A stretch of 12,193 nt of DNA from an uncultured Sphingorhabdus sp. (GTDB taxonomy: Bacteria; Pseudomonadota; Alphaproteobacteria; Sphingomonadales; Sphingomonadaceae): contig CALMYW010000450.1 of assembly GCA_937873665.1 (NCBI GenBank), forward strand, positions 1 to 12,193, read 5' to 3'. Shown here one piece after another: positions 1,386 to 12,193 of this stretch. A model generated the notes under the pieces. That model did no database searches and was not told where the DNA came from. It saw only the letters and a list, made by a program, of their open reading frames with translations. Each line of letters starts with the position of its first letter. The first letter of the stretch is position 1. The translations under genes and the position numbers were made by a program.

Positions 1386-3152
1386 TCAGAGCACCAGCGC
1401 CTCGATAGTGTCCGCACCGAACCAGTTCTCGAGCGTGTGGAGCGCCCCCGGAGACAGATGCTGTGTAAAAAGAAGCGCCAAGCGCTGCTTTGGCCGCGAA
1501 CAGGCCACATAGAAAAGATTGCGATTGCGTTCAAAAGCTGCCTGCCGCGCCGCCGGAACTGCGGCGGACCCGGCGAGCTCTAGCATCTCGTTGAAGTTGT
1601 AGAGGTTCCAACCACGCCCAACGATTACCAGCACGTTTTCGAACTCGGCGCCTTTGACGCCGTGCTTGGTTTCGAAGGGCGATGATCCGTTGAGATAGCG
1701 CCGCAGCGCCGAAATTTCCGCAAAAGAGACCGCATGGAGCCGCTCGATTTCCGCCAGCACCGGCGGCATTTCTTCCTGCCCCTCCCGGTCAAACTCGGAA
1801 AGCTCTCGTTCCCGATCAGTTATCGCATCGGGCAAGCGCGGGCGGCGTGCGGCCTTCAGGTGACCCAGCACGTCGGCGACCGAGCCGTTGGCCCGTAGTT
1901 CGGCAAGTGCCTGCATCGAGGCTGACCAAGCCTCTTTGTCGAACGGTCGGCGGAGATGCGGCACTCCGGATCCCAGAGCCTCGAACATCGCCCCATAACG
2001 GTGCGCGGCGAACGCTTCGCATGCTGGCTCAAACATTTCGACCAACCAGGAAATGTAGGGGTGTTCCTTTCGCGTGAATGACTCGTTGAATCGAAAGGTA
2101 GCGGGCAGGCTTGCGTAGCCTTGCTCCGTGGCTAGCACGCGATGGGTAAGCATCAGAATTTTGGTGTGTTCGGGCGTGATGTTCCAGCCACCCGCCTCGA
2201 GTCGGGCTCGCACTTGTTCTATCGCTTGATGCGCCTCGGGCCCCGGCAAGTCGCCCCCCCAATGGCCGCCTGTTTGTCGCTGACCGGCCCATTCATTGGT
2301 GTGGAAGACATGGACCTCGCCCCGCACTTCGGGGTCCTCGACGAATTGTGGAAGGGCAGGCCGCATAGCATTGAGGACGTCAACCACCGCCTGGACCGAA
2401 CGAAAATTGGCGCCCTTGTCGATCTCTTCGACGGCAGGATGTTCGAGCTTGCCGCAGCCATTGCCGTAGATTTTCTGCCAATGGTCGCCGAAAAAGCCGA
2501 ACAATGGAGCCCCGGGGACACCCAAGAAATGCTGCTTGATTGCGGCTACCCAGTTGGCATCAGTGTCTTGGTACTCGTCGATCAATATGATTGGGTATCG
2601 CTGGGCGACGAGCCGACGGAACTTGGCGTGCTCCATCAGCGCGATCGTCAGCGGCAAGATGTCGTCGTGATGCAGCGAAAGCGTTTGTTCGCGGATCGAG
2701 CGATGGCCCAGGCTATACTCGATGCTGCGTTCGCCGATACCGCCGGCTTCTTCGAGCCGCTCCTGCCAAGCGGGCATCGCTGCGACTTGCTCGCGCAGCT
2801 GGCGCTGGAAGCCGCCGATTAGCGACCAGCAGAAGCCATGATTGGTATCGCAGCAGATGATTGGGTGCTTGTCGGTACGCGCCTCGATCTCGTCGCGCGC
2901 AACATTGGTATAGGTGATACAGGCGACCTGTTGGCCGCGTCGCGGCATGTCTCGCGCATGCTTCTTGATCAGATATTCGAGCGCCTTGATCAACGAGTAT
3001 GTCTTGCCCGCACCCGCGCCGGCTTCGAGCCGGAAGCTCCGCCCCTCGGCGAGCGCCGCATAGACGCGCTCGAGCGCGATACGGCTTGCTTGCTCGGCGG
3101 GGGTCTCAGGCACCGGCGGCTCCATCAATATCCGCGACGACGTCTGCTGCAT
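1386..3152 (-). CDS. gajB: Gabija GajB-like UvrD/Rep-family helicase
   Basis: A superfamily 1 helicase of about 588 residues. Motifs, counted from the ATG at 3152, are in order: Walker A AGAGAGKT (44-51), motif Ia TYTN (about 80-83), Walker B DEYQD (192-196), motif III GDHWQ (222-226), motif IV NFRS (249-252), motif V KHGVKGAEF (496-504) and motif VI NLFYVACSR (545-553). The protein is longer than the roughly 490 residues of Bacillus GajB. In Gabija, GajB pairs with the GajA nuclease and is thought to sense DNA ends or nucleotide changes during phage replication; that role is from the literature on the family. The frame overlaps the gajA stop by 47 bases, as expected for coupled subunits. Starts at TTG 3164 (GGAGG 3 bases upstream) and ATG 3125 are also possible. 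A plain UvrD helicase unrelated to defence is less likely given its partner. Confidence 0.87.
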   Translation of the reverse strand: MQQTSSRILMEPPVPETPAEQASRIALERVYAALAEGRSFRLEAGAGAGKTYSLIKALEYLIKKHARDMPRRGQQVACITYTNVARDEIEARTDKHPIICCDTNHGFCWSLIGGFQRQLREQVAAMPAWQERLEEAGGIGERSIEYSLGHRSIREQTLSLHHDDILPLTIALMEHAKFRRLVAQRYPIILIDEYQDTDANWVAAIKQHFLGVPGAPLFGFFGDHWQKIYGNGCGKLEHPAVEEIDKGANFRSVQAVVDVLNAMRPALPQFVEDPEVRGEVHVFHTNEWAGQRQTGGHWGGDLPGPEAHQAIEQVRARLEAGGWNITPEHTKILMLTHRVLATEQGYASLPATFRFNESFTRKEHPYISWLVEMFEPACEAFAAHRYGAMFEALGSGVPHLRRPFDKEAWSASMQALAELRANGSVADVLGHLKAARRPRLPDAITDRERELSEFDREGQEEMPPVLAEIERLHAVSFAEISALRRYLNGSSPFETKHGVKGAEFENVLVIVGRGWNLYNFNEMLELAGSAAVPAARQAAFERNRNLFYVACSRPKQRLALLFTQHLSPGALHTLENWFGADTIEALVL

Positions 3153-5184
3153 CTGCGGCAGCAAGAGCCTCCGCGAGGACTGGATCGGCGGGGGGGATGT
3201 CGTCGGCGGCGAGCCAGACGATGCCGTCGGTAAGGTAACGCGGCGCGACCCAATCCTTGTCCTCGATCGCGTAGGTCATTGCGAAGTCGGACTTCTTGAA
3301 TTCGCTTGCCTTGGCGCGCGCTGCAATTTCGAGTGCCCCGTGATCTGCGCCGCCGATCCCAAACTTGTGCGCATTGGCGAGAATGAATGCATCCTCGAAG
3401 GTCCGCCCGCAAGGGCCGCCGGCCACTTCCGGACATTGATAGGCGATGCGCATTGAACCCTTGTGCTTGGCGGAATCGTCCTTCGCCAATATGGCGGCAA
3501 GTGTCAGAGGATCGTCGTCGTACCAACTCTTGATGCAGCCGTTGCTCGTCGCAGTCCCCTGATGGACTGGGCACGCTTGCCCTCCAGGAATGAGGGTCGC
3601 GTCGAGGTCGGTAATGATCAGGGTCCGCAACTCGAGAAACTCGAGCAGGTCTGTGAAGCGGTGCGCAAATGCGCCGCCTACTTCGATAATCGAGGTGTAT
3701 TGCGTCGACAGCTTGGTCGCTTCGGGGTCCGCGGCTTCGAACATCTCGGTCACCACAGGCAGCATTAACCGCTCACTCAGGCCTTCAACGAGGATCGCTT
3801 TGTCGGCAAAGAACAGGTCGCACCGCGTCAACGTCATATATTGATGGAGGAAGCGCTTCTCAGCCTCAGGCTTGCCGGCCAACCCAGTGCGCAGGTCCTT
3901 GATCTTCGTGCGCCGCACGCCGGCCGGCGCTGCCGGGGCGGCGGCGGACAGGAAATAGCGGATGCTCTCGAAGCCGGCCGCATTGGCGATGTGCGACGAA
4001 TGAGTCGAGACCACGAACTGCACTGGCCAAACTGCGGCATCCTCAGAGTCATCGACAAGCTGCTGAGCGATATTCGCCAATTGGCGGATGAACACTTCCT
4101 GCATCTGCGGGTGGAGATGAGCTTCGGGCTCCTCAATGAAGATCAGGTGGACCCCAGGCGCGGTCGTCTCGGCGCGGTAGGATTTGTAGAAGCCGACGAG
4201 CTGCAAGAGGATGAAGATCAGATTGCGCACGCCGAGACCGTTATAGGATTCGGGCAACGGCACTCCACCGAACCCGGCATAGCGAACCTTGGTAAAGTTC
4301 GAGAGTAGCCGCTTTACATCGAGCACTGTTTCGGTCTGGAGGTCTTGGCCGCCAAGCCCAGGATAGCCGAAGCTCTTCAGCGTCGGCAGCAGCTTGGCGA
4401 GTTGGTCGGCGAAATTTTCGTCAAGCTGGTTCTGGATGTCCTCGACTGCCGCCGTCAACGCCGCGGCGATCGCCTTGTCGCTGGCATCAGCCGCATCGGA
4501 ACTCGCGGTGGAGAACATGTTCTCGAGCACCTTCGCGAGAACATCAGACTCGCGTGACGTGACGTCATCGAGGCCGCGCTGGGCGTTAATGAAACCGGTC
4601 TTCACCAGATGGCGCAAAGATGCGGGCGGCATTTCTCGGACGTTGGTCGCGTCATTTGGGTCCTCGGCGCGGATCACCAATCCATAATGCTTGGGCACGC
4701 GCTCTCGCATCAGGCGCAGGAAGGCGAAGCGCGTCGCCTCGGTGAGAGGCTCAGCTGGCGCATCGGCAAAGAAGGCCGCGATTGCCCCATCTTTTAACTC
4801 GTAGCGCAGAACCACAAGCGCGTGCAGGCAGGCAGGATCGAGGTCGATCACGAACGGCGCAAGCGGACCGAAATCGGGAAGGTCAGCATCATAGCTGAAG
4901 CGGATCCGCATCTCGATCACGGGCAACGCGGAGCGCACAGCCTCGTCGCTGGCGGCGCCATTGCGGGCTTCTAGCGCCTCGCAGAAGCTGGCGTAGCAAG
5001 CGCTTGAGAAGTCCTCGAGGTGGAAACTCGCATTAGCGTCAGTCAGTAACCGCTTCATGATCTCTGATAGCGAGGTCTTGCCGCTGTTGTTGCGCCCGAC
5101 AATGACCGTGGTCTGATCTTCGAGCGCGAGCGCGGTGTCGGCAAGCAGCCGGAAATTACGAATATTTACAGAGTCTATGCGCAT
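3106..5184 (-). CDS. gajA: Gabija GajA-like OLD-family ATPase with TOPRIM nuclease
   Basis: A 692-residue protein with an N-terminal ABC-type ATPase and C-terminal TOPRIM domain, the layout of class 2 OLD nucleases. ATPase motifs: Walker A GRNNSGKT (30-37), signature-like YNGLGVRN (314-321), Walker B LIFIEEPEAHLHP (347-359), H-loop STHSSH (393-398). TOPRIM motifs: ILVEGLSE with E467 and E471, TDLDA with D526 and D528, then TSNGC, GRTFEDAF (593-600, E597) and KSDFA with K631, which fit metal-dependent DNA cleavage. GajA in Gabija is a sequence-specific DNA nickase controlled by nucleotides (family knowledge). It is longer than Bacillus GajA (about 578 residues), with an alanine/aspartate-rich tail that overlaps the start of gajB. 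AGGAAAAG lies upstream of the ATG. A lone OLD nuclease is the alternative, but the helicase partner makes Gabija much more likely. Confidence 0.9.
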   Translation of the reverse strand: MRIDSVNIRNFRLLADTALALEDQTTVIVGRNNSGKTSLSEIMKRLLTDANASFHLEDFSSACYASFCEALEARNGAASDEAVRSALPVIEMRIRFSYDADLPDFGPLAPFVIDLDPACLHALVVLRYELKDGAIAAFFADAPAEPLTEATRFAFLRLMRERVPKHYGLVIRAEDPNDATNVREMPPASLRHLVKTGFINAQRGLDDVTSRESDVLAKVLENMFSTASSDAADASDKAIAAALTAAVEDIQNQLDENFADQLAKLLPTLKSFGYPGLGGQDLQTETVLDVKRLLSNFTKVRYAGFGGVPLPESYNGLGVRNLIFILLQLVGFYKSYRAETTAPGVHLIFIEEPEAHLHPQMQEVFIRQLANIAQQLVDDSEDAAVWPVQFVVSTHSSHIANAAGFESIRYFLSAAAPAAPAGVRRTKIKDLRTGLAGKPEAEKRFLHQYMTLTRCDLFFADKAILVEGLSERLMLPVVTEMFEAADPEATKLSTQYTSIIEVGGAFAHRFTDLLEFLELRTLIITDLDATLIPGGQACPVHQGTATSNGCIKSWYDDDPLTLAAILAKDDSAKHKGSMRIAYQCPEVAGGPCGRTFEDAFILANAHKFGIGGADHGALEIAARAKASEFKKSDFAMTYAIEDKDWVAPRYLTDGIVWLAADDIPPADPVLAEALAAADAADVVADIDGAAGA

Positions 5185-5307: not shown

Positions 5308-7545
5308 TTAGTCGGATGGCATGCCTGATAGCTCACGAATTAATTGACGCATCGGTTCACGAAGAGGTTCGTGTCGACGAACCCAAACCCGGCGCAGGAG
5401 ATCTTCCGGCACATAAGCGTCGTATTTTTCAACCATGAGATTCTCCACGAACCGTCCGAGGTCCTCAATTGGAGGGCAGCCATCGATTGATGCGATCACA
5501 TCGGAAGCGGCGTCGATTGGACAGCCCGTCAAAGTGATTCCGACGTCGAATGTCTCGCAGGCGAAACCCATAGACGTGAGCAATACCGCGAGCAGGGAAT
5601 TTGCTGATGTACCTCGCCAAGTAAGGACGTGCGTGGCGGAGCCCGCATCGATGAAGCGGGCACGTTCCAGGCCGAGTTCGGCGAAGGCCGAGCGGCCCGC
5701 AGCCAAGAGCTCCTTGGCGTTTTCGTCGAGATAGTCTGGAAGATCCTCGCTCATCAAGACAGCCAGCATTTTAGCTGTAAGGCGGTCATGGATTGGCTCC
5801 TGACCAAGGCGATCAAACTTTGGCACACGTCCTGCGTTATGTGCGACGACCTCAACGACCTTCGCTCGGTCGTCCACACCGGTCGCGCGCCAACGACGTC
5901 CCGCAAATCCAATTATCGATCCGACAACAAGCGCGTTTACGATTGGCAGTGTCCCGAGTGTCCGTCCTGAATGGACTAAGCGCCATTCCTCGTCGGTCGA
6001 GAAGTTCGCATAAAAGTCTCGTGATGCAGTTAGCTTTTCCCCTTCAGGGCCGAGCATCAGCGAACCGTCAGGTGCTTGCTCTATCAATGCCGTCTCCCCA
6101 CTGCCCATGCCTCGGAGCAGATCGACGAAATCGGCTTTCTTGAGAGCTGCAAATGGTCCTTGCCGACACAATGCTGCGTAGAGGGCCCCGGCGCTCATCG
6201 CACCCAATTGGACTAGCAGTGACAGAATTTGGTGGACACTAACCGACAGCAGAGCTGGGTCAGTTCCAGGTGGTTCAACGAACTTCAAGCGTAGCAGGTT
6301 AAGCGCCGCGACGGCCTGGACTACGGGCAAGTGCAATTTGTCCAGCGGATCAGCGTCGGCAACAGGATAAGGTTCACGCAAATAATTCCGGAAGATCGCG
6401 CTGGATCCCTCTCGACGACCGGACCGGCCTAGCCGTTGCCGTAATGATGCGAGCGAGCGTGGCGCGCCAAGCTGCGACACTGCAACGACGGAACCTATAT
6501 CAATACCGAGCTCCAGCGTGGTCGTCGCAACTGCCGTTGTTGGCAAGCGGCCGTCCTTCAGTCGCAACTCGAGTTCTTCTCGCAGGCCTTTGCTCAGACT
6601 ACCGTGATGAGGAAAGAACTCGTTTGGTACTTGGGCTTCTTCGCAGATCGTGCGGAGGCGGTCGGCCAGGGTTTCGACATTGGCCCTAGAACCGGCAAAA
6701 AAGAGGTTATTGCTCCCGCGAAGAGCTTCAAATGCGTGTTGAGCGATCTGAGCCAATGCCGATCCAGCTTGCGGATCATCAAGCATCGTATCGCTGCCCG
6801 GATGGCTTTCAGGTGGTTCGACATAGTCGCGAACCTGGACTTTGAGCGGTGGGGCACCGCCCGCCACTGCAATGATCTTCGTTGGTTTGGGCGTGGTTTC
6901 GCTCAACCATCGCGCGGCGAATTCGAGGTCGCCTATTGTAGCTGACAATCCCACTCGGCGCGGCCGCCGATCGTTCAGCACCTCGATCCGATACAACAAG
7001 CTCGAAAGGTGAAGACCTCTTGGTCCTTGGAGGAAGGAATGAAGCTCGTCGATTATGATTGCATCAAGCGCACCAAAAAGGGCTTCGGCAGTCGCCGGTC
7101 GCCGCAACAGCATTGCCTCGATAGATTCCGGAGTGATCAGGACCACACCGGCGGGCGCCCTGATGATCTTGGTCTTAGGCCCTTGGGGGGCGTCACCATG
7201 CCAACGAACCAGCGGTAATTCGAGCATGTCGCACAGATCTTCAAGCCGACGGAACTGATCGTTGATCAATGCCTTGAGCGGAGCGACGTAAAGAATTGAG
7301 ATGCCAGGCTGCTCCCGTGTCGCTGAGGAACCAAGGAGCGGCAAGAAAGCAGCTTCGGTCTTGCCGGCTGCAGTCGCGGCTGAAATCAGGACATCCTCGT
7401 CGCTGCCACAGATTGCCGCAATCGCCTGCTCTTGCACATCTCGCAGACGCGACCAGCCCTGCTGTCTGACCCAGCGTTGGATCTGCGGATGAAGCAGATC
7501 GAACCCGGAACCGCCTTCAGAGCTCGAACGTGGCAAGCTCATCAT
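5308..7545 (-). CDS. sngC: Shango SngC-like DEAD/H helicase, Lhr-related
   Basis: A superfamily 2 helicase of about 745 residues. It opens with the Lhr/Ski2-type Q-motif region (FDLLHPQIQRW, then DVQEQAI). Counting from ATG 7545, motifs are Walker A ATAAGKT (57-63), motif Ia APLKAL, TPES, DELH as motif II (166-169), SAT (201-203), TTTLELGIDIG (341-351) and QRLGRSGRR (370-378). The part after the helicase core resembles the Lhr winged-helix and beta-barrel region, including a GTLPIVNA segment followed by GRRWRATGVD. No nuclease motif is visible. Shango needs a TerB protein, an ATPase and a helicase, and all three are here in order. The start overlaps the sngB end by 29 bases; ATG 7587 and GTG 7599 are alternatives. 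A housekeeping Lhr would normally be longer and not in this operon. Confidence 0.85.
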   Translation of the reverse strand: MMSLPRSSSEGGSGFDLLHPQIQRWVRQQGWSRLRDVQEQAIAAICGSDEDVLISAATAAGKTEAAFLPLLGSSATREQPGISILYVAPLKALINDQFRRLEDLCDMLELPLVRWHGDAPQGPKTKIIRAPAGVVLITPESIEAMLLRRPATAEALFGALDAIIIDELHSFLQGPRGLHLSSLLYRIEVLNDRRPRRVGLSATIGDLEFAARWLSETTPKPTKIIAVAGGAPPLKVQVRDYVEPPESHPGSDTMLDDPQAGSALAQIAQHAFEALRGSNNLFFAGSRANVETLADRLRTICEEAQVPNEFFPHHGSLSKGLREELELRLKDGRLPTTAVATTTLELGIDIGSVVAVSQLGAPRSLASLRQRLGRSGRREGSSAIFRNYLREPYPVADADPLDKLHLPVVQAVAALNLLRLKFVEPPGTDPALLSVSVHQILSLLVQLGAMSAGALYAALCRQGPFAALKKADFVDLLRGMGSGETALIEQAPDGSLMLGPEGEKLTASRDFYANFSTDEEWRLVHSGRTLGTLPIVNALVVGSIIGFAGRRWRATGVDDRAKVVEVVAHNAGRVPKFDRLGQEPIHDRLTAKMLAVLMSEDLPDYLDENAKELLAAGRSAFAELGLERARFIDAGSATHVLTWRGTSANSLLAVLLTSMGFACETFDVGITLTGCPIDAASDVIASIDGCPPIEDLGRFVENLMVEKYDAYVPEDLLRRVWVRRHEPLREPMRQLIRELSGMPSD

Positions 7546-8821
7546 CGCCGTCAATTGCAGTGGCAACGTCCTCGCCAGGATCGTCATCCACCGAAACACT
7601 CCCGATCAAGGTTCGCCAATCGAGAGCAGGGTTCTGCTCCAGGATTGCAAGGAGCTGGACGAAGGCCTTGATGGTGTTACGCGGCGTCCTGAAATAGGCT
7701 TCGCCAATGCGTTGGCTGCAATGCGCCATGAATGCGTCGAGTGCTTCATCGGGTACGAGATGGTTCGCCGGGTCACCTAAAGCGAAGATCGCACGGATGT
7801 TGCCTAACAGGATCAAAAATTCTTCAGGCGAAAGGTTCTGCAAACGCACAACCGGTCCGCTCAGGTCGACTAACCCGGGTGCGGCAAACTGGTTTTCTGC
7901 AAGCCGGGATTGCAGGGCCTCATAGCTGTAGAGCCCGCGACGGCTGTCCATGAGGAATTCAGGCGTGCCACCAAAAACAAAGCCGAGCCCTTCGGAATTG
8001 CCCTGGAGCATATCGTTGACCATGCGCAGGATCTGCTCGAAATTCTGGTTTCGTGCCTGGGAGCTCTGCAATTTGTAAATGTTGACCATCTCGTCGAACA
8101 CGACAAGCAATCCGGTGTAGCCAGCGAGACGAGTGAAGCGAGCAAGGAGCTTCAGGCTGTCAAATATATCGGCGTCGTCGATTATCGAACGGACCCCTAG
8201 AGCTTGGCGTGCCTCAGTTTTCGTCGGAAACTCAGCGCGCAGCCAACGCAGTGCCGAAGCCTTCAAAGCCTCGTTACCATCCTCGCTGCCCTGCCAGTAG
8301 GACTTGAGCACATGCGCAAAATCATGGCCGCCCACCAGCTCTTGGATCGAAGCGAGGCGATCATCGATGACCTGTTCAACGGGCCTCTTATCGGCATGCG
8401 CCACCTTCACGCATTCGCTGATGAAGCGTTCGACAACGCTTGGTAGTGCGCCGCCGTCCGGTTTGGTCCGTGTCGCCATGTTGCGGATCGCCTCAGCATA
8501 AAGCCCGCGCGCCTGACCGCCGGTCGCATGAATGCGACGATCGGGAGCCAGGTCGGCGTGAATGGTAACGCACCGACGTTCCAGCGCGATTAGCCGTACG
8601 AGGCTCAGGAAGAAGGTCTTACCAGCACCGTATTCGCCGATAACGAACCGGCACGATGAACCGCCGTCGGCGATCCGGTCTATGTCCTTGACTAAGGCAC
8701 CGACCTCGAGCATCCGCCCGACTTGGATGTGCTGCAAGCCCACCCGCGGGACAACGCCAGCAGCGAGCGCTTGAACTATCGTGTCGCGGTCGCGAAGCCG
8801 GATTGGTGTACGCTCGGTCAT
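7517..8821 (-). CDS. sngB: Shango SngB-like P-loop ATPase (BrxD/DUF2791-related)
   Basis: A 434-residue AAA-type ATPase. Visible motifs are Walker A GEYGAGKT (62-69), Walker B LLVVFDEM with D243 and E244, a sensor-like strand FVFGGTPEF (281-289) and an arginine-rich element YFRTPRNTIKAF (about 377-388) near the C-terminus. This pattern is that of the DUF2791/BrxD group, P-loop proteins found in some BREX types and in TerB-helicase operons. No BREX methylase, PglZ or BrxC gene is in view, so Shango SngB fits better. The ATG at 8821 shares ATGA with the sngA stop (4-base overlap), with AGGAG about 12 bases upstream, so longer starts up to 8920 are not needed. The acidic C-terminal tail overlaps the sngC start. 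It presumably powers loading or regulation of the helicase; this is inference. Confidence 0.87.
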   Translation of the reverse strand: MTERTPIRLRDRDTIVQALAAGVVPRVGLQHIQVGRMLEVGALVKDIDRIADGGSSCRFVIGEYGAGKTFFLSLVRLIALERRCVTIHADLAPDRRIHATGGQARGLYAEAIRNMATRTKPDGGALPSVVERFISECVKVAHADKRPVEQVIDDRLASIQELVGGHDFAHVLKSYWQGSEDGNEALKASALRWLRAEFPTKTEARQALGVRSIIDDADIFDSLKLLARFTRLAGYTGLLVVFDEMVNIYKLQSSQARNQNFEQILRMVNDMLQGNSEGLGFVFGGTPEFLMDSRRGLYSYEALQSRLAENQFAAPGLVDLSGPVVRLQNLSPEEFLILLGNIRAIFALGDPANHLVPDEALDAFMAHCSQRIGEAYFRTPRNTIKAFVQLLAILEQNPALDWRTLIGSVSVDDDPGEDVATAIDGDDELATFEL

Positions 8822-11800
8822 GCGGCAGCCATGCTCCTGATTTTGTCGATGAGGTGCGGTTGAATCGAAACAATGTCTTCGCATTCGATCGCGATGTCGT
8901 CGAGGGCGTCGAATGCCCAATCGTTTATGGTTTCAACGGCTCCATCGGGGAGCAGTCGGTGCTCGCGGCAAAGGGTCTCGAACGTATCGGCCTCAACCGG
9001 CTGTTCCGAAAGCTTCAGAAGCACGTGCGAATGTGCGGCATCAAGACCAGGCAGGCTCCGCTCATCGGGCTGAGTTTGGGCAGAAGGTTCTGTCGAGGCC
9101 AATTCCTCTTCGCGAAAAATGCTTGAGAGCATGGTCGCGACAGCAGTTGTCTCCCGCCGAAGCCGCTCCAACCTCTCGCCATCAACGACGTGGGTTGGCT
9201 GGTTCTTGCCAGTGCTTTGCGATCGTGGGCTGTCTTCACCCGCGTGCAGTCGCGCATAAACCTCGTCCTGCGACTTCCCGAGGGACTTGTAGAGCCCTTC
9301 CAGAAAGCGGACTTCGGAAGGCAATACGCGTTGATCAGCAAGGATTGCGCGAACGGCAGTGGTCAGTACCCGATCCTTTTCTTCGTCGGGCAACGCCAGC
9401 AGCCGATTGGTCGCCGCTCGCATTTTTGAAGGATTCAATGCCAACGCCTGTGCATGAGCGCGCAATCTATGATGGTCGTTCGATTCCAGCCCTGCAATCT
9501 GTGCGACCTCGTCGAGGATCACGCTCATCTCAGCGTCGACGACCTTATCGTCTGCCTTGGCGGCCAGAACCGCAATCTCGATCATCGTGCGGGCCGAACG
9601 GTACTCATCACGGTCGTGATGCGGCTTGATCGACTTACCCATCTCGAACAGGCACAAAATTGTGTCGTTGCTTAAAGTGGGGACAGGGCCGTACCGCTTG
9701 TCTGGCTCAAAGCCGATATGCATTGCATCGAGGATTTCGGGCAGACGCTTGAACAAGAATGCCCTTCGGTCTGCGGCAAGCGGCCCCGGTTTCCCCGCCA
9801 GAACTTCCAATACCTGACCAAGAGGCTTCTGCGCCAAACCGTCTTTGCTGTCTCCGTCAAATAGACAAGTTCGCGCTGCCGCAAGAAGCGTCTCGGCCCG
9901 ATCATCCAGCGCCTCGGCCGGACAAAGTGCAGCAGCGAGCAATGTCGCGCGTTCTTCGGGATTTCGGCCCAGGAACCGACTAAGCGGGTCGAGTGCCGCA
10001 GTACATTCCGTCAGCAAGGCCTCCAACTTGGTCACAGGCCCCGCGATGGCACCAATATCGGGCAAGTCTTCCAATGCGGCATGAACATTGAACTCGCCGC
10101 TCGCTGCTCGATAATTGAATTGCAGACGCGTTTTGCCCCCGCGAACCTTGATGCCGTCGGGGAAGCGTTCGGCGAAGCGATAGCGCCACAACGCGCAGAA
10201 CTGATCAAAGCAGCGGCTAACGGCGGTTCGCGGATAGAGCTGCGGATGCGTCAAAGCCCAGCACAAGGCGTCATCGGTATCTATTGCTGTCCCGTCACGG
10301 ACTTTGCGTCCAAGCCGCACCCGGATGCCAATGGGGATTTCCCAACCTCGCCGCATGTCGAGCGAGATTGCATTGCCAGTGGGTGCGATGTCGAAGATCA
10401 ACTCGCCGGCCTCAATCAGCGCGCCACAGTAATTACGGAATGAGTGGTTATCGCCATAGATATCCAGCAGGCGTCGCGCTTCCACGAGGATCGCGCGAGC
10501 ATCCTTCTCGCTTTTCTCCGCGATCAAGCGACGTTCGAGCCCATAGAAATAGACGAAAATATACCCGATGGGTGCGTTCGGCGCACAACGCCCGGAAGCC
10601 AGCCACTCCAGATATGCTCGACGTGCTGAGGGCGCTAACTCGCTATAGTTCGGCCAGTAACCCAGAGTGGTCCCGAGCGAGTCTGCATCGAATGCAACCG
10701 ACAGCGTCGGGTCCACAAGTGCACGATGGCTCGAGCGTCGATCGGATTTTCCGTAGTAAAGCAGCTCCCCTTGAAATTCGATACCGGCCACCTCCACCGT
10801 GGTTGGCTCGGAAATCCAACGTGCAGCTGGCACAGGAGCGAATGGTTTGGCGAGCTTGGCGATGAAGCTTTGAGGAGCTTCCCTTCTCGGGGCGGAAAAT
10901 GACGGGGACTGCGGCGTCGAAACTGGCCGATGACTGTAACCAACGGCCGCCCTGCGCGCATCCTCAAGCTTGGCATGGGCATACCCACGAACGTAAAACT
11001 GACCATCCCTGCCCAGCTTGATTCCAGGTTCGATTTCGGCCCAGCTCTCTTTGGGCCCACTGTACGTCGCGGGCTGGGGAGGGTTGTCGGAAAAGCCAGC
11101 GGTTGGCCCGTTTGAGCCAATGACCGACGAAGGCGCGGCCGTTCCTCGCCGCCGTTGCGCATAATTCTCAGCTTGTGCCCTCGTAGTGAATGTATAGCCG
11201 CCGGACATGAAGCGACCATCTGAGGTCGGAGTGACCTCGTATTTGTCAGCCCCAGTGCTCATCGACGAGCCAGGATTTTCTGAGGCGTTCTCCCTTGAGG
11301 CTGGATCCAGCACCCCTTTGATAGCAGCGTTCCTCCGCTCACCGTCGTTCTCTTCACTTGATCGCCGCGCTGACCGTCGATTCTCGGTGAGGCCGAACTG
11401 ATAGGCTTCCTTGTAACTGGCGAAGGCCAATCCGACGCATTCGAATGTGCCGTCCGGCAAACACAACACACCATGCTGGTCGCGGGTTGGTTGCTCGCTG
11501 GTAGTCTGGATGTCATCTTCTGACGATGCGCTGACCGGGTCGCAACCCGCATTGGCCACCTCGGGTGTTTCGCCATATCGGTTCCTCCCCCGTTCGCCCC
11601 GCGGCGCCATGAGACCAAGAGAAATTGCCAGTAAGGCCATGCCTGCCAACGGTTGGATGAAAAGCGCCGAATAGCCAGCGATGTTGATCGAAACGAGCCA
11701 ACCACTCCTACCTTGGTCATGCAGGCGGCGCGCCTGCAGCGCAAACCATGGCACTGCCGTAACTGCCCACCAGAAAACGTATGCCAGTGCCCAAGTCGGA

Positions 11801-11955
11801 GTAGCTTTGGCAGCGGTCTGCGTGCTGACACCGGTAAGAAAGACGGTGATGACTAATACAGCAGCCGAAAGTGCAAAGAACCACCAGAACTCGCGCGGAC
11901 TCGCACGTCCGGAGAAGTCCGAGTACTTTCGAAAAGGCATTAACGCGTTGTGCAT
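8818..11955 (-). CDS. sngA: Shango SngA-like TerB protein with N-terminal DUF805 membrane domain
   Basis: About 1045 residues from ATG 11955 (AGGTGA 11 bases upstream; GTG 11970 and ATG 11940 are alternatives). Residues 1-131 look like DUF805: YSDFSGRASPREFWWF, two to four hydrophobic helices up to about residue 116, RRLHDQGRSGW at about 76-86, and NRYGETP at the end. Residues 132-365 are a polar, probably disordered linker with three copies of a D-G-x-F-x3-G module (168-188, 246-266, 317-337). TerB_N follows (about 380-595; VEVAGIEFQGELLYYG, LGYWPNYSELAP, IGYIFVYFYGLERR). A central TerB fold (about 785-905) carries acidic ADDKVVDAE, and TerB_C (about 915-1045) ends the protein. TerB domains bind metal and associate with membranes in ter stress systems. 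The role in Shango is probably sensing or scaffolding. The DUF805 fusion is unusual to me. Confidence 0.85.
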   Translation of the reverse strand: MHNALMPFRKYSDFSGRASPREFWWFFALSAAVLVITVFLTGVSTQTAAKATPTWALAYVFWWAVTAVPWFALQARRLHDQGRSGWLVSINIAGYSALFIQPLAGMALLAISLGLMAPRGERGRNRYGETPEVANAGCDPVSASSEDDIQTTSEQPTRDQHGVLCLPDGTFECVGLAFASYKEAYQFGLTENRRSARRSSEENDGERRNAAIKGVLDPASRENASENPGSSMSTGADKYEVTPTSDGRFMSGGYTFTTRAQAENYAQRRRGTAAPSSVIGSNGPTAGFSDNPPQPATYSGPKESWAEIEPGIKLGRDGQFYVRGYAHAKLEDARRAAVGYSHRPVSTPQSPSFSAPRREAPQSFIAKLAKPFAPVPAARWISEPTTVEVAGIEFQGELLYYGKSDRRSSHRALVDPTLSVAFDADSLGTTLGYWPNYSELAPSARRAYLEWLASGRCAPNAPIGYIFVYFYGLERRLIAEKSEKDARAILVEARRLLDIYGDNHSFRNYCGALIEAGELIFDIAPTGNAISLDMRRGWEIPIGIRVRLGRKVRDGTAIDTDDALCWALTHPQLYPRTAVSRCFDQFCALWRYRFAERFPDGIKVRGGKTRLQFNYRAASGEFNVHAALEDLPDIGAIAGPVTKLEALLTECTAALDPLSRFLGRNPEERATLLAAALCPAEALDDRAETLLAAARTCLFDGDSKDGLAQKPLGQVLEVLAGKPGPLAADRRAFLFKRLPEILDAMHIGFEPDKRYGPVPTLSNDTILCLFEMGKSIKPHHDRDEYRSARTMIEIAVLAAKADDKVVDAEMSVILDEVAQIAGLESNDHHRLRAHAQALALNPSKMRAATNRLLALPDEEKDRVLTTAVRAILADQRVLPSEVRFLEGLYKSLGKSQDEVYARLHAGEDSPRSQSTGKNQPTHVVDGERLERLRRETTAVATMLSSIFREEELASTEPSAQTQPDERSLPGLDAAHSHVLLKLSEQPVEADTFETLCREHRLLPDGAVETINDWAFDALDDIAIECEDIVSIQPHLIDKIRSMAAA
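10945..11454 (-). repeat. Three degenerate protein-level repeats in the SngA linker
   Basis: The linker between membrane and TerB_N regions codes three 21-residue units: DGTFECVGLAFASYKEAYQF (11454 down to 11392, first 20 residues shown), DGRFMSGGYTFTTRAQAENY (11220 down to 11158) and DGQFYVRGYAHAKLEDARRA (11007 down to 10945). All fit D-G-x-F-x3-G-[LY]-x-[FH] followed by a short helix with a conserved alanine. Spacers of about 57 and 50 residues are rich in S, P, N and R. The DNA copies are diverged, so this is an old duplication of a small beta-hairpin-helix module and not a recent tandem repeat. Confidence 0.7.
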
Positions 11956-11993: not shown

Positions 11994-12193
11994 TCACTGC
12001 AATCGTGACTCTATGACGCTTCCATTCACTCTTTTTCGAACACTGAAGCCATTGGGGACAGCCTGCTGAACCATCGGTACGTGAGAAATCAATCCGACGG
12101 ATCGGCGTTCGCCAACGATGTCTTGCAGGACCTGCAACACCTGATCCAGCGTGCCAGCGTCGTTCTCGGTATCCAAACTGCCGAAACCTTCAT
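11994..12193 (-). CDS. SbcC/SMC-type exonuclease ATPase, C-terminal fragment, rest beyond the right edge
   Basis: Only the last 65 or so residues are inside the window. In frame they begin DEGFGSLDTEN at the very edge, which is the Walker B to D-loop region of SbcC/Rad50/SMC ATPases. They continue with a helix and then VGLISHVPMVQQ (the H-loop segment of SbcC, usually IISHV), and finish with a beta-rich tail that ends at TGA 11994. SbcC with SbcD processes hairpins and double-strand ends; many phage-defence operons also use SbcC-like ATPases. The stop lies 38 bases from the preferred sngA start, on the same strand, so co-transcription with Shango is likely. Whether this is housekeeping SbcC or a defence-specific homologue cannot be told from the fragment. 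An ATG at the edge (12193) is in another frame and is not the start. Confidence 0.85.
   Translation of the reverse strand, partial: EGFGSLDTENDAGTLDQVLQVLQDIVGERRSVGLISHVPMVQQAVPNGFSVRKRVNGSVIESRLQ

What the first reader, a model, noticed from the sequence alone, without database searches (positions are those of the whole stretch)
8818..11955. Membrane-anchored variant of the Shango TerB subunit (DUF805 fused to TerB_N-TerB-TerB_C)
The N-terminal 130 residues carry DUF805 hallmarks (YSDFSGRAS, REFWWF, RRLHDQGRSGW, NRYGETP) and several hydrophobic helices, directly in frame with the three TerB regions. The TerB subunit of Shango is known for the TerB domains; I am not aware of a described variant with its own membrane domain. 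The fusion would place the ATPase-helicase partners at the inner membrane, where they could meet incoming phage DNA. The idea fits earlier reports of TerB-family association with membranes.
Basis: partly seen in the sequence, partly recalled or inferred. Interest (0 to 1): 0.72.

Follow-up and report, generated by a model that had tools for sequence, protein, structure and literature searches.

The report
Shango defence protein with membrane anchor
In a group of sphingomonad bacteria the TerB protein of the Shango anti-phage system begins with a four-helix membrane domain (DUF805), and comparison with its relatives suggests that this is one of several interchangeable membrane anchors on that protein, which points to Shango working at the inner membrane.

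Summary
The gene at 8818-11955 (- strand) encodes a full Shango SngA with an in-frame N-terminal DUF805 domain (Pfam E=3e-20), followed by sngB and sngC. The fusion is not chance: 65 of the 120 listed homologue clusters carry it, the window's own included. DUF805 is nearly as conserved as the TerB domains, the linker is not, and a tree of SngA cores needs a single gain.

The interpretation needs correcting. DUF805 is rare among SngA (2 of 25 in an SngB-anchored survey), but a membrane anchor is not: 16 of those 25 have a hydrophobic N-terminal segment, as has E. coli SngA. One Shango locus read has a leader, a peptidoglycan-binding domain and one helix instead. Membrane attachment thus looks widespread in Shango, and DUF805 is the sphingomonad version of a replaceable anchor.

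Two extra findings: an unnamed ~33-residue beta-beta-beta-alpha mini-domain (1-4 copies) between anchor and core, and SbcD-SbcC directly upstream in the six close relatives whose upstream is held. Most likely mechanism: SngA tethers the SngB ATPase and SngC helicase to the inner membrane, where phage DNA enters. The tether is well supported; the DNA step is inferred.

The parts
8818..11955 (-). sngA: DUF805 - linker with three mini-domains - TerB_N - TerB - TerB_C (1045 aa)
   Evidence: Pfam and PADLOC; AlphaFold model
11569..11925 (-). DUF805 domain (aa 11-129)
   Evidence: PF05656 E=3e-20
11608..11898 (-). four predicted membrane helices (aa 20-42, 53-80, 85-100, 102-116)
   Evidence: AlphaFold secondary structure; Kyte-Doolittle finds the regions of helices 1 and 4 only
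11374..11472 (-). linker mini-domain copy 1 (aa 162-194)
   Evidence: HMM built from 16 copies, this one included, E=2e-11; folded in the model with pLDDT about 90
11140..11238 (-). linker mini-domain copy 2 (aa 240-272)
   Evidence: E=1.9e-14 (copy is in the HMM); own model beta-beta-beta-alpha, mean pLDDT 81
10927..11025 (-). linker mini-domain copy 3 (aa 311-343)
   Evidence: E=7e-11 (copy is in the HMM); pLDDT 74-83
10222..10806 (-). TerB_N domain (aa 384-578)
   Evidence: PF13208 E=6.5e-44
9262..9576 (-). TerB domain (aa 794-898)
   Evidence: PF05099 below cut-off; Foldseek hits of the whole model to 2h5n and 2ou3
8836..9222 (-). TerB_C domain (aa 912-1040)
   Evidence: PF15615 E=5.2e-24
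7517..8821 (-). sngB: BrxC/D-type ATPase; its ATG overlaps the sngA stop (ATGA)
   Evidence: PADLOC SngB 2.3e-175; junction read
5308..7545 (-). sngC: DEAD-box helicase (start uncertain: ATG 7587, 7545 or 7542)
   Evidence: PADLOC SngC 8.3e-239
11994..12193 (-). C-terminal tail of sbcC, cut by the window end; 38 nt before the sngA ATG
   Evidence: NCBIfam sbcc 1.3e-7 (under its cut-off for the whole protein); full SbcD-SbcC upstream of sngA in L001-L006

Best explanation
This is the SngA subunit of a Shango anti-phage system from a sphingomonad-type bacterium. Its membrane anchor is a DUF805 four-helix domain with both ends predicted on the cytoplasmic side, so the TerB_N-TerB-TerB_C core would hang in the cytoplasm on a long, mostly disordered linker carrying three small folded mini-domains. 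Shown by sequence: the domain order, conservation of DUF805, one gain of DUF805 on the tree, and that most other SngA examined have a different N-terminal hydrophobic segment. Inferred: that SngA tethers the SngB ATPase and SngC helicase to the inner membrane, so that the helicase meets phage DNA as it enters, in the manner of the membrane-placed systems Zorya, Kiwa and SNIPE. On this reading DUF805 is an exchanged anchor, not a new function.
For: DUF805 plus TerB domains in one ORF; 65 of the 120 listed homologue clusters have both. In 24 relatives of 42-57% overall identity, DUF805 is 43-63% identical to the window, TerB_N 51-69%, TerB_C 45-58%, linker 15-28%. Tree of 100 SngA cores: DUF805 needs 1 change, SH-aLRT 90; all four anchor states together 12 changes. 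SngB-anchored survey over alpha, gamma, Chloroflexota and Sphingomonadaceae genomes: of 25 readable SngA N-termini, 16 pass Kyte-Doolittle 1.6, 2 are weaker, 7 have none. Of 37 homologue clusters, 26 pass; random core stretches of equal length pass in 141 of 1650 draws and shuffled N-termini in 312 of 1650. In 34 of 48 non-DUF805 SngA with a helix, net charge is higher after it than before (5 equal, 9 lower), as expected for a cytoplasmic core. L012 has a leader (read by eye), a PG_binding_1 domain (E=2.6e-16), a helix and then the core, next to sngB and sngC. Zorya, Kiwa and SNIPE as membrane-placed systems: passages of PMC12904381.
Against: No experiment seen places any SngA at the membrane. 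7 of 25 surveyed SngA, including the three nearest sisters of the DUF805 clade (L118-L120), show no membrane helix, so an anchor is not needed everywhere; 7 of 37 clusters lack one too, some of them named Micromonospora or Phycicoccus. Hydropathy over 19 residues is a crude predictor, and shuffled N-termini pass it in 19% of draws. In the five more distant DUF805 rows of alignment A1 (P0060-P0065), DUF805 keeps 34-38% against 47-49% for TerB_N. The survey sets contain near-copies (L116 and L121 are identical in the core). No interaction between SngA, SngB and SngC was tested. The claim that phage DNA is met at entry is analogy only.
Confidence: 0.72

Rival explanations
1. DUF805 is more than an anchor: it senses a change in the membrane (or opens it) when a phage injects, and switches the SngB-SngC machine on or kills the cell.
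For: DUF805 is conserved nearly as well as the TerB domains, more than a bare tether would need. The kinds of anchor differ and some have a peptidoglycan-binding part; [quoted passage not shown]
Against: Many SngA make do with one short helix and almost no residues outside (E. coli P0115), which leaves little to sense with. Membrane helices are often conserved for packing alone (general knowledge).
Confidence: 0.2
2. The membrane segment matters for a housekeeping or stress role of TerB proteins and not for phage defence.
For: TerB domains also occur in tellurite and stress systems (recalled).
Against: 26 of the 27 genome-contig loci with a readable SngA N-terminus have sngB and sngC frames beside sngA; L005 keeps only a piece of sngB and no sngC, and sngC of L006 and sngB of L028 are split. 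The PA14 Shango operon was shown to protect against phages (PMC10250203, passages).
Confidence: 0.07
3. The fusion is an assembly or frame artefact.
For: None found.
Against: Same architecture in 65 of the 120 listed clusters, in 9 of 30 genome-contig loci and in the complete plasmid pSWIT02 of Rhizorhabdus wittichii RW1, whose record calls the gene 'protein of unknown function DUF805'.
Confidence: 0.01

Closest known systems
Shango (SngA-SngB-SngC) of E. coli and P. aeruginosa PA14
   Same: Same three genes in the same order in the E. coli chromosome read; the core scores as PADLOC SngA. E. coli SngA also has an N-terminal hydrophobic helix.
   Different: E. coli SngA (767 aa) has one short helix and a short linker; here a four-helix DUF805 and a 240-residue linker with three mini-domains. 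Matches to PADLOC's SngA profile (528 positions) begin after the anchor (at profile positions 12-30), so it seems blind to this part. The PA14 protein itself was not read.
Zorya (ZorA-ZorB-ZorC-ZorD)
   Same: A membrane component, with a peptidoglycan-binding domain in ZorB and in some SngA, plus a DEAD-box helicase partner in type I (PMC11890865 passages).
   Different: No MotA/MotB-like motor here; the window's SngA and SngB hit no Zorya model in PADLOC at E 0.01. Resemblance of plan, not kinship.
Kiwa (KwaA-KwaB)
   Same: An inner-membrane protein that brings a DNA-binding partner to the injection site (PMC12904381 passages).
   Different: The window's SngA and SngB hit no Kiwa model in PADLOC. 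In Kiwa sensor and DNA binder are two proteins; here anchor and TerB core are one chain and the partners are an ATPase and a helicase.
Stand-alone DUF805 proteins (E. coli YhaH type; the name YhaH comes from labels)
   Same: Same Pfam domain, over the family's cut-off.
   Different: Apart from the SngA frames and one overlong frame, DUF805 matches in 8 genomes lie in open frames of 155-386 aa; here it is fused to a 900-residue defence protein.

Membership tests
Shango | sngA with TerB-type domains | tested here: met
   PADLOC SngA E=1.8e-83; TerB_N and TerB_C over Pfam cut-offs, middle TerB below it
Shango | sngB ATPase next to sngA | tested here: met
   PADLOC SngB E=2.3e-175 at 7517-8821, 4-base overlap with sngA
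Shango | sngC DEAD-box helicase | tested here: met
   PADLOC SngC E=8.3e-239
Shango | protects against phages | not testable with these tools
   shown for the PA14 operon in PMC10250203 (passages), not for this one
DUF805 (PF05656) | profile match over the curated cut-off along the whole domain | tested here: met
   73.2 bits against 25.7, profile positions 1-111 of 111
DUF805 (PF05656) | several membrane helices | tested here: met
   four helices in the model; two regions by hydropathy alone
Zorya | ZorA/ZorB motor pair | tested here: not met
   no Zorya model among PADLOC hits of window SngA and SngB at E 0.01; for SngC only 25 of 55 hits were shown and none was Zorya
Kiwa | KwaA and KwaB | tested here: not met
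   no Kwa model among PADLOC hits of window SngA and SngB at E 0.01

The most novel reading that the evidence does not exclude
Shango is an envelope-triggered DNA-targeting system. SngA is a membrane-bound receptor whose outer or membrane part (single helix, helix hairpin, DUF805, or leader plus peptidoglycan-binding domain plus helix) is swapped between lineages to read phage entry, and whose cytoplasmic TerB core releases or recruits the SngB-SngC motor onto incoming DNA, in one sphingomonad clade together with a neighbouring SbcCD nuclease.
Probability: 0.3. Interest if true: 0.82.

Novelty: new variant of a known kind. Interest (0 to 1): 0.55.

Why it matters
How Shango works is listed as 'Unknown' in a 2026 review (PMC12926258, passages). 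Another review names Zorya, Kiwa and SNIPE as DNA-targeting systems with membrane-embedded sensors (PMC12904381, passages). If SngA is a membrane protein with exchangeable anchors, Shango would join them, and the question of its trigger becomes testable in E. coli, where 458 of 5,426 complete genomes hold a match to an E. coli-type sngA, 438 of them over at least 80% of the gene. Matches to the PADLOC profile begin after the anchor, which may be why this has gone unremarked in what I could search.

Tried and rejected
A second DUF805 fusion suspected in a Caulobacteraceae genome (G004, 696-aa frame) was rejected: reading the frames shows only a long open stretch; no partner domain was searched for in it (the attempt to do so failed). 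The mini-domain as a known family: Pfam gave nothing consistent at E up to 10 (best 0.032, five families, at most 2 of 16 copies), and Foldseek on its own model gave nothing better than E 0.47, mostly pieces of SH2 domains. A likeness to AP2-type DNA-binding folds came to mind from the motif; no call supports it, so it is not claimed. The mini-domain outside SngA: of 199 Sphingomonadaceae genomes, matches lay in SngA of three and, weakly (E 4e-5 to 8e-4), in small frames of 79-87 aa in three others; not followed. SngA against solved structures by sequence gave three weak hits, of which 2h5n fits TerB. SbcCD as an obligate Shango partner was weakened: none of the other 24 genome-contig loci shows it within the fetched flanks, though L023-L025 hold no upstream and L008, L010 and L014 under 3 kb; and one genome has WYL-SbcD-SbcC with no Shango gene found in the 17.5 kb read (L146).

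Rows dropped before counts. SngB-anchored survey: 28 places with SngB over 300 bits; 3 dropped (L097 no start codon ahead of the core, L109 contig end, L110 no SngA found). Genome contigs: 30 loci; L023, L024, L025 dropped as cut. The helix of L010 and L011 lies ahead of the first ATG and rests on a non-ATG start; L019 passes 1.6 only in the stop-to-stop frame (1.71; 1.53 from ATG); all three are counted as having a helix in the 27. In one search, 335 of 354 proteins had a full core; 33 of 37 clusters entered the control. In one search, 101 rows were aligned out of the proteins and loci held; L097 was then left out of the tree.

Full report
What is there. On the minus strand the window reads, in order: the last 65 codons of an sbcC gene, sngA (8818-11955), sngB (7517-8821), sngC (5308 to about 7545), gajA (3106-5184) and gajB (1386 to about 3125). 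PADLOC names sngABC and gajAB with very strong scores. SngA has DUF805 (E=3e-20), TerB_N and TerB_C above Pfam's cut-offs and a middle TerB just below it; the model of the whole protein matches TerB-like structures, with weak E-values. sngA and sngB overlap by ATGA, so the fusion sits inside a tight gene row.

Is the fusion real and kept? Of 209 homologues found with the whole protein, the best 120 are listed and 65 of these, the window's own cluster included, have DUF805 with TerB domains. Nine of 30 loci from genome contigs have it, in records named Novosphingobium, Sphingobium, Sphingopyxis, Sphingomonadales or (two MAGs) plain Pseudomonadota/Proteobacteria. The complete conjugative plasmid pSWIT02 of Rhizorhabdus wittichii RW1 carries it too, annotated as 'protein of unknown function DUF805', followed by a hypothetical gene and a DEAD/DEAH helicase. 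In 24 relatives (P0013 to P0056 in alignment A1), DUF805 keeps 43-63% identity to the window while the linker keeps 15-28% and TerB_N 51-69%. In five more distant rows (P0060-P0065) it keeps 34-38% against 47-49% for TerB_N. So the domain is under constraint, somewhat less than TerB_N.

How the model looks. AlphaFold with 44 sequences gives mean pLDDT 78.5 (pTM 0.51): four helices in DUF805, three small folded units at about 163-195, 242-270 and 306-338 separated by stretches under pLDDT 50, then a mostly confident core. One unit modelled alone is beta-beta-beta-alpha (mean pLDDT 81.3). An HMM from 16 copies finds 1-4 copies per protein in 83 sequences, all SngA, among 237 homologous proteins and the frames of 60 aa or more of 55 loci. 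Pfam and Foldseek give the unit no name.

Is membrane attachment special to this variant? No. To avoid choosing by the window's own N-terminus, I searched genomes for SngB and then read the neighbouring SngA. In 289 alphaproteobacterial, 369 gammaproteobacterial, 201 Chloroflexota and 298 Sphingomonadaceae genomes (the sets overlap a little) there were 28 places with SngB over 300 bits. I read 25 SngA N-termini: 16 pass Kyte-Doolittle 1.6 over 19 residues, 2 reach 1.0-1.6, 7 have nothing. DUF805 accounts for 2 of the 16. In the 27 readable genome contigs SngA, a set biased towards the window, 9 have DUF805, 15 another hydrophobic segment, 3 none (two of the 15 rest on a non-ATG start and one on the stop-to-stop frame). 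Among 37 clusters of homologous proteins at 60% core identity, 7 have DUF805, 19 another segment, 4 a weaker one, 7 none. Random core stretches of the same length pass in 141 of 1650 draws and shuffled N-termini in 312 of 1650. E. coli SngA has the helix at residues 1-19 followed by four lysines (P0115; L135), beside annotated ATPase and helicase genes in the chromosome read. In 34 of 48 non-DUF805 SngA the net charge is higher after the last helix than before; 5 are equal and 9 lower.

Kinds of anchor. Seen are one short helix (E. coli, Alteromonas), two hydrophobic segments (Pseudomonas, Microbulbifer), a longer hydrophobic stretch (Caldilineaceae), DUF805 (sphingomonads), and a leader plus PG_binding_1 plus helix (Aerophototrophica L012 with sngB and sngC beside it; P0077, P0092, P0103 and P0113 have the same domain but their neighbours were not read; in P0113 the helix scores only 1.52). 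Leaders were judged by eye. On a tree of 100 SngA cores, DUF805 is one side of a branch (SH-aLRT 90) inside an alphaproteobacterial group. Its sister (L118-L120) has one mini-domain but no helix, and the next branch (Caulobacteraceae type) has one helix and mini-domains. The mini-domain is thus probably older than DUF805 in this line. The four anchor states need at least 12 changes. This was a quick tree without bootstrap, with some long branches.

Surroundings. In the six close relatives whose upstream is held (L001-L006) a WYL-domain regulator on the other strand is followed by sbcD, sbcC and sngA; four of the six (L001-L004) go on with unbroken sngB and sngC frames, L006 has a split sngC, and L005 keeps only a piece of sngB. 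L023 and L025, also close, begin inside or after sngA. In the window 38 nt separate sbcC and sngA. None of the 24 other genome-contig loci shows SbcCD or WYL within the fetched flanks, some of them short. Two of these genomes had no second copy of this SbcC. But WYL-SbcD-SbcC also occurs with no Shango gene in the stretch read (L146), so SbcCD may be a neighbour and not a part. In L003 and L004 the left flank with DUF3768 follows Shango directly, so the window's Gabija looks like an added cassette.

Mechanism. Best supported: SngA is an inner-membrane protein with a cytoplasmic TerB core, and here the anchor is DUF805. Inferred: it holds SngB and SngC near the place where phage DNA enters. Zorya, Kiwa and SNIPE are described as membrane-placed (PMC12904381, passages; for Zorya also PMC11890865, passages). 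Shango is not a member of those families; the likeness is of plan.

Literature seen. PMC10250203 (passages): Shango as TerB, ATPase and helicase, modest protection on plates; the word membrane occurs once, about gasdermin. In the passages seen, PMC10952713, PMC11096173, PMC12278908, PMC12926258 and PMC11680222 mention Shango without a membrane role. Searches for DUF805 with TerB (none), Shango with transmembrane and TerB (one unrelated paper), SngA/SngB/SngC (five papers, two of them read in passages), Bunzi with Shango and membrane (one), DUF805 with phage and membrane (two, unrelated by title) and Shango/TerB/membrane/ATPase/helicase (12 of 83 listed) gave no description of a membrane-anchored SngA in what I saw.

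Noticed in passing
window 11994-12193; L001:2900-7959: An sbcD-sbcC pair and a divergent WYL-domain regulator lie directly upstream of sngA in the 6 close relatives whose upstream is held (window shows only the sbcC tail). No nuclease was seen among the Shango genes, so SbcCD could supply one; but the WYL-SbcD-SbcC set also occurs with no Shango gene in the 17.5 kb read (L146).
   Followed up: partly
window 10927-11472: An unnamed beta-beta-beta-alpha mini-domain of about 33 residues, 1-4 copies per protein, found clearly only in SngA of one alphaproteobacterial group.
   Followed up: partly
window 1386-5184: A complete Gabija (gajA, gajB) follows sngC on the same strand; in L003 and L004 the DUF3768 flank follows Shango directly, so Gabija looks like an extra cassette here.
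   Followed up: partly
L012:7290-10094: SngA of Aerophototrophica with leader (by eye), PG_binding_1 domain, one helix and TerB core, beside sngB and sngC.
   Followed up: partly
L005:11036-14848: In this close relative only a piece of sngB follows sngA and about 3.5 kb of other sequence stands where sngB and sngC would be.
   Followed up: no
L006:7986-15753: A relative lacks about 70 residues in frame including mini-domain 1, and its sngC is split by about 1.3 kb.
   Followed up: no
L126, L127, L128: Small frames of 79-87 aa in three sphingomonad genomes weakly match the mini-domain.
   Followed up: no
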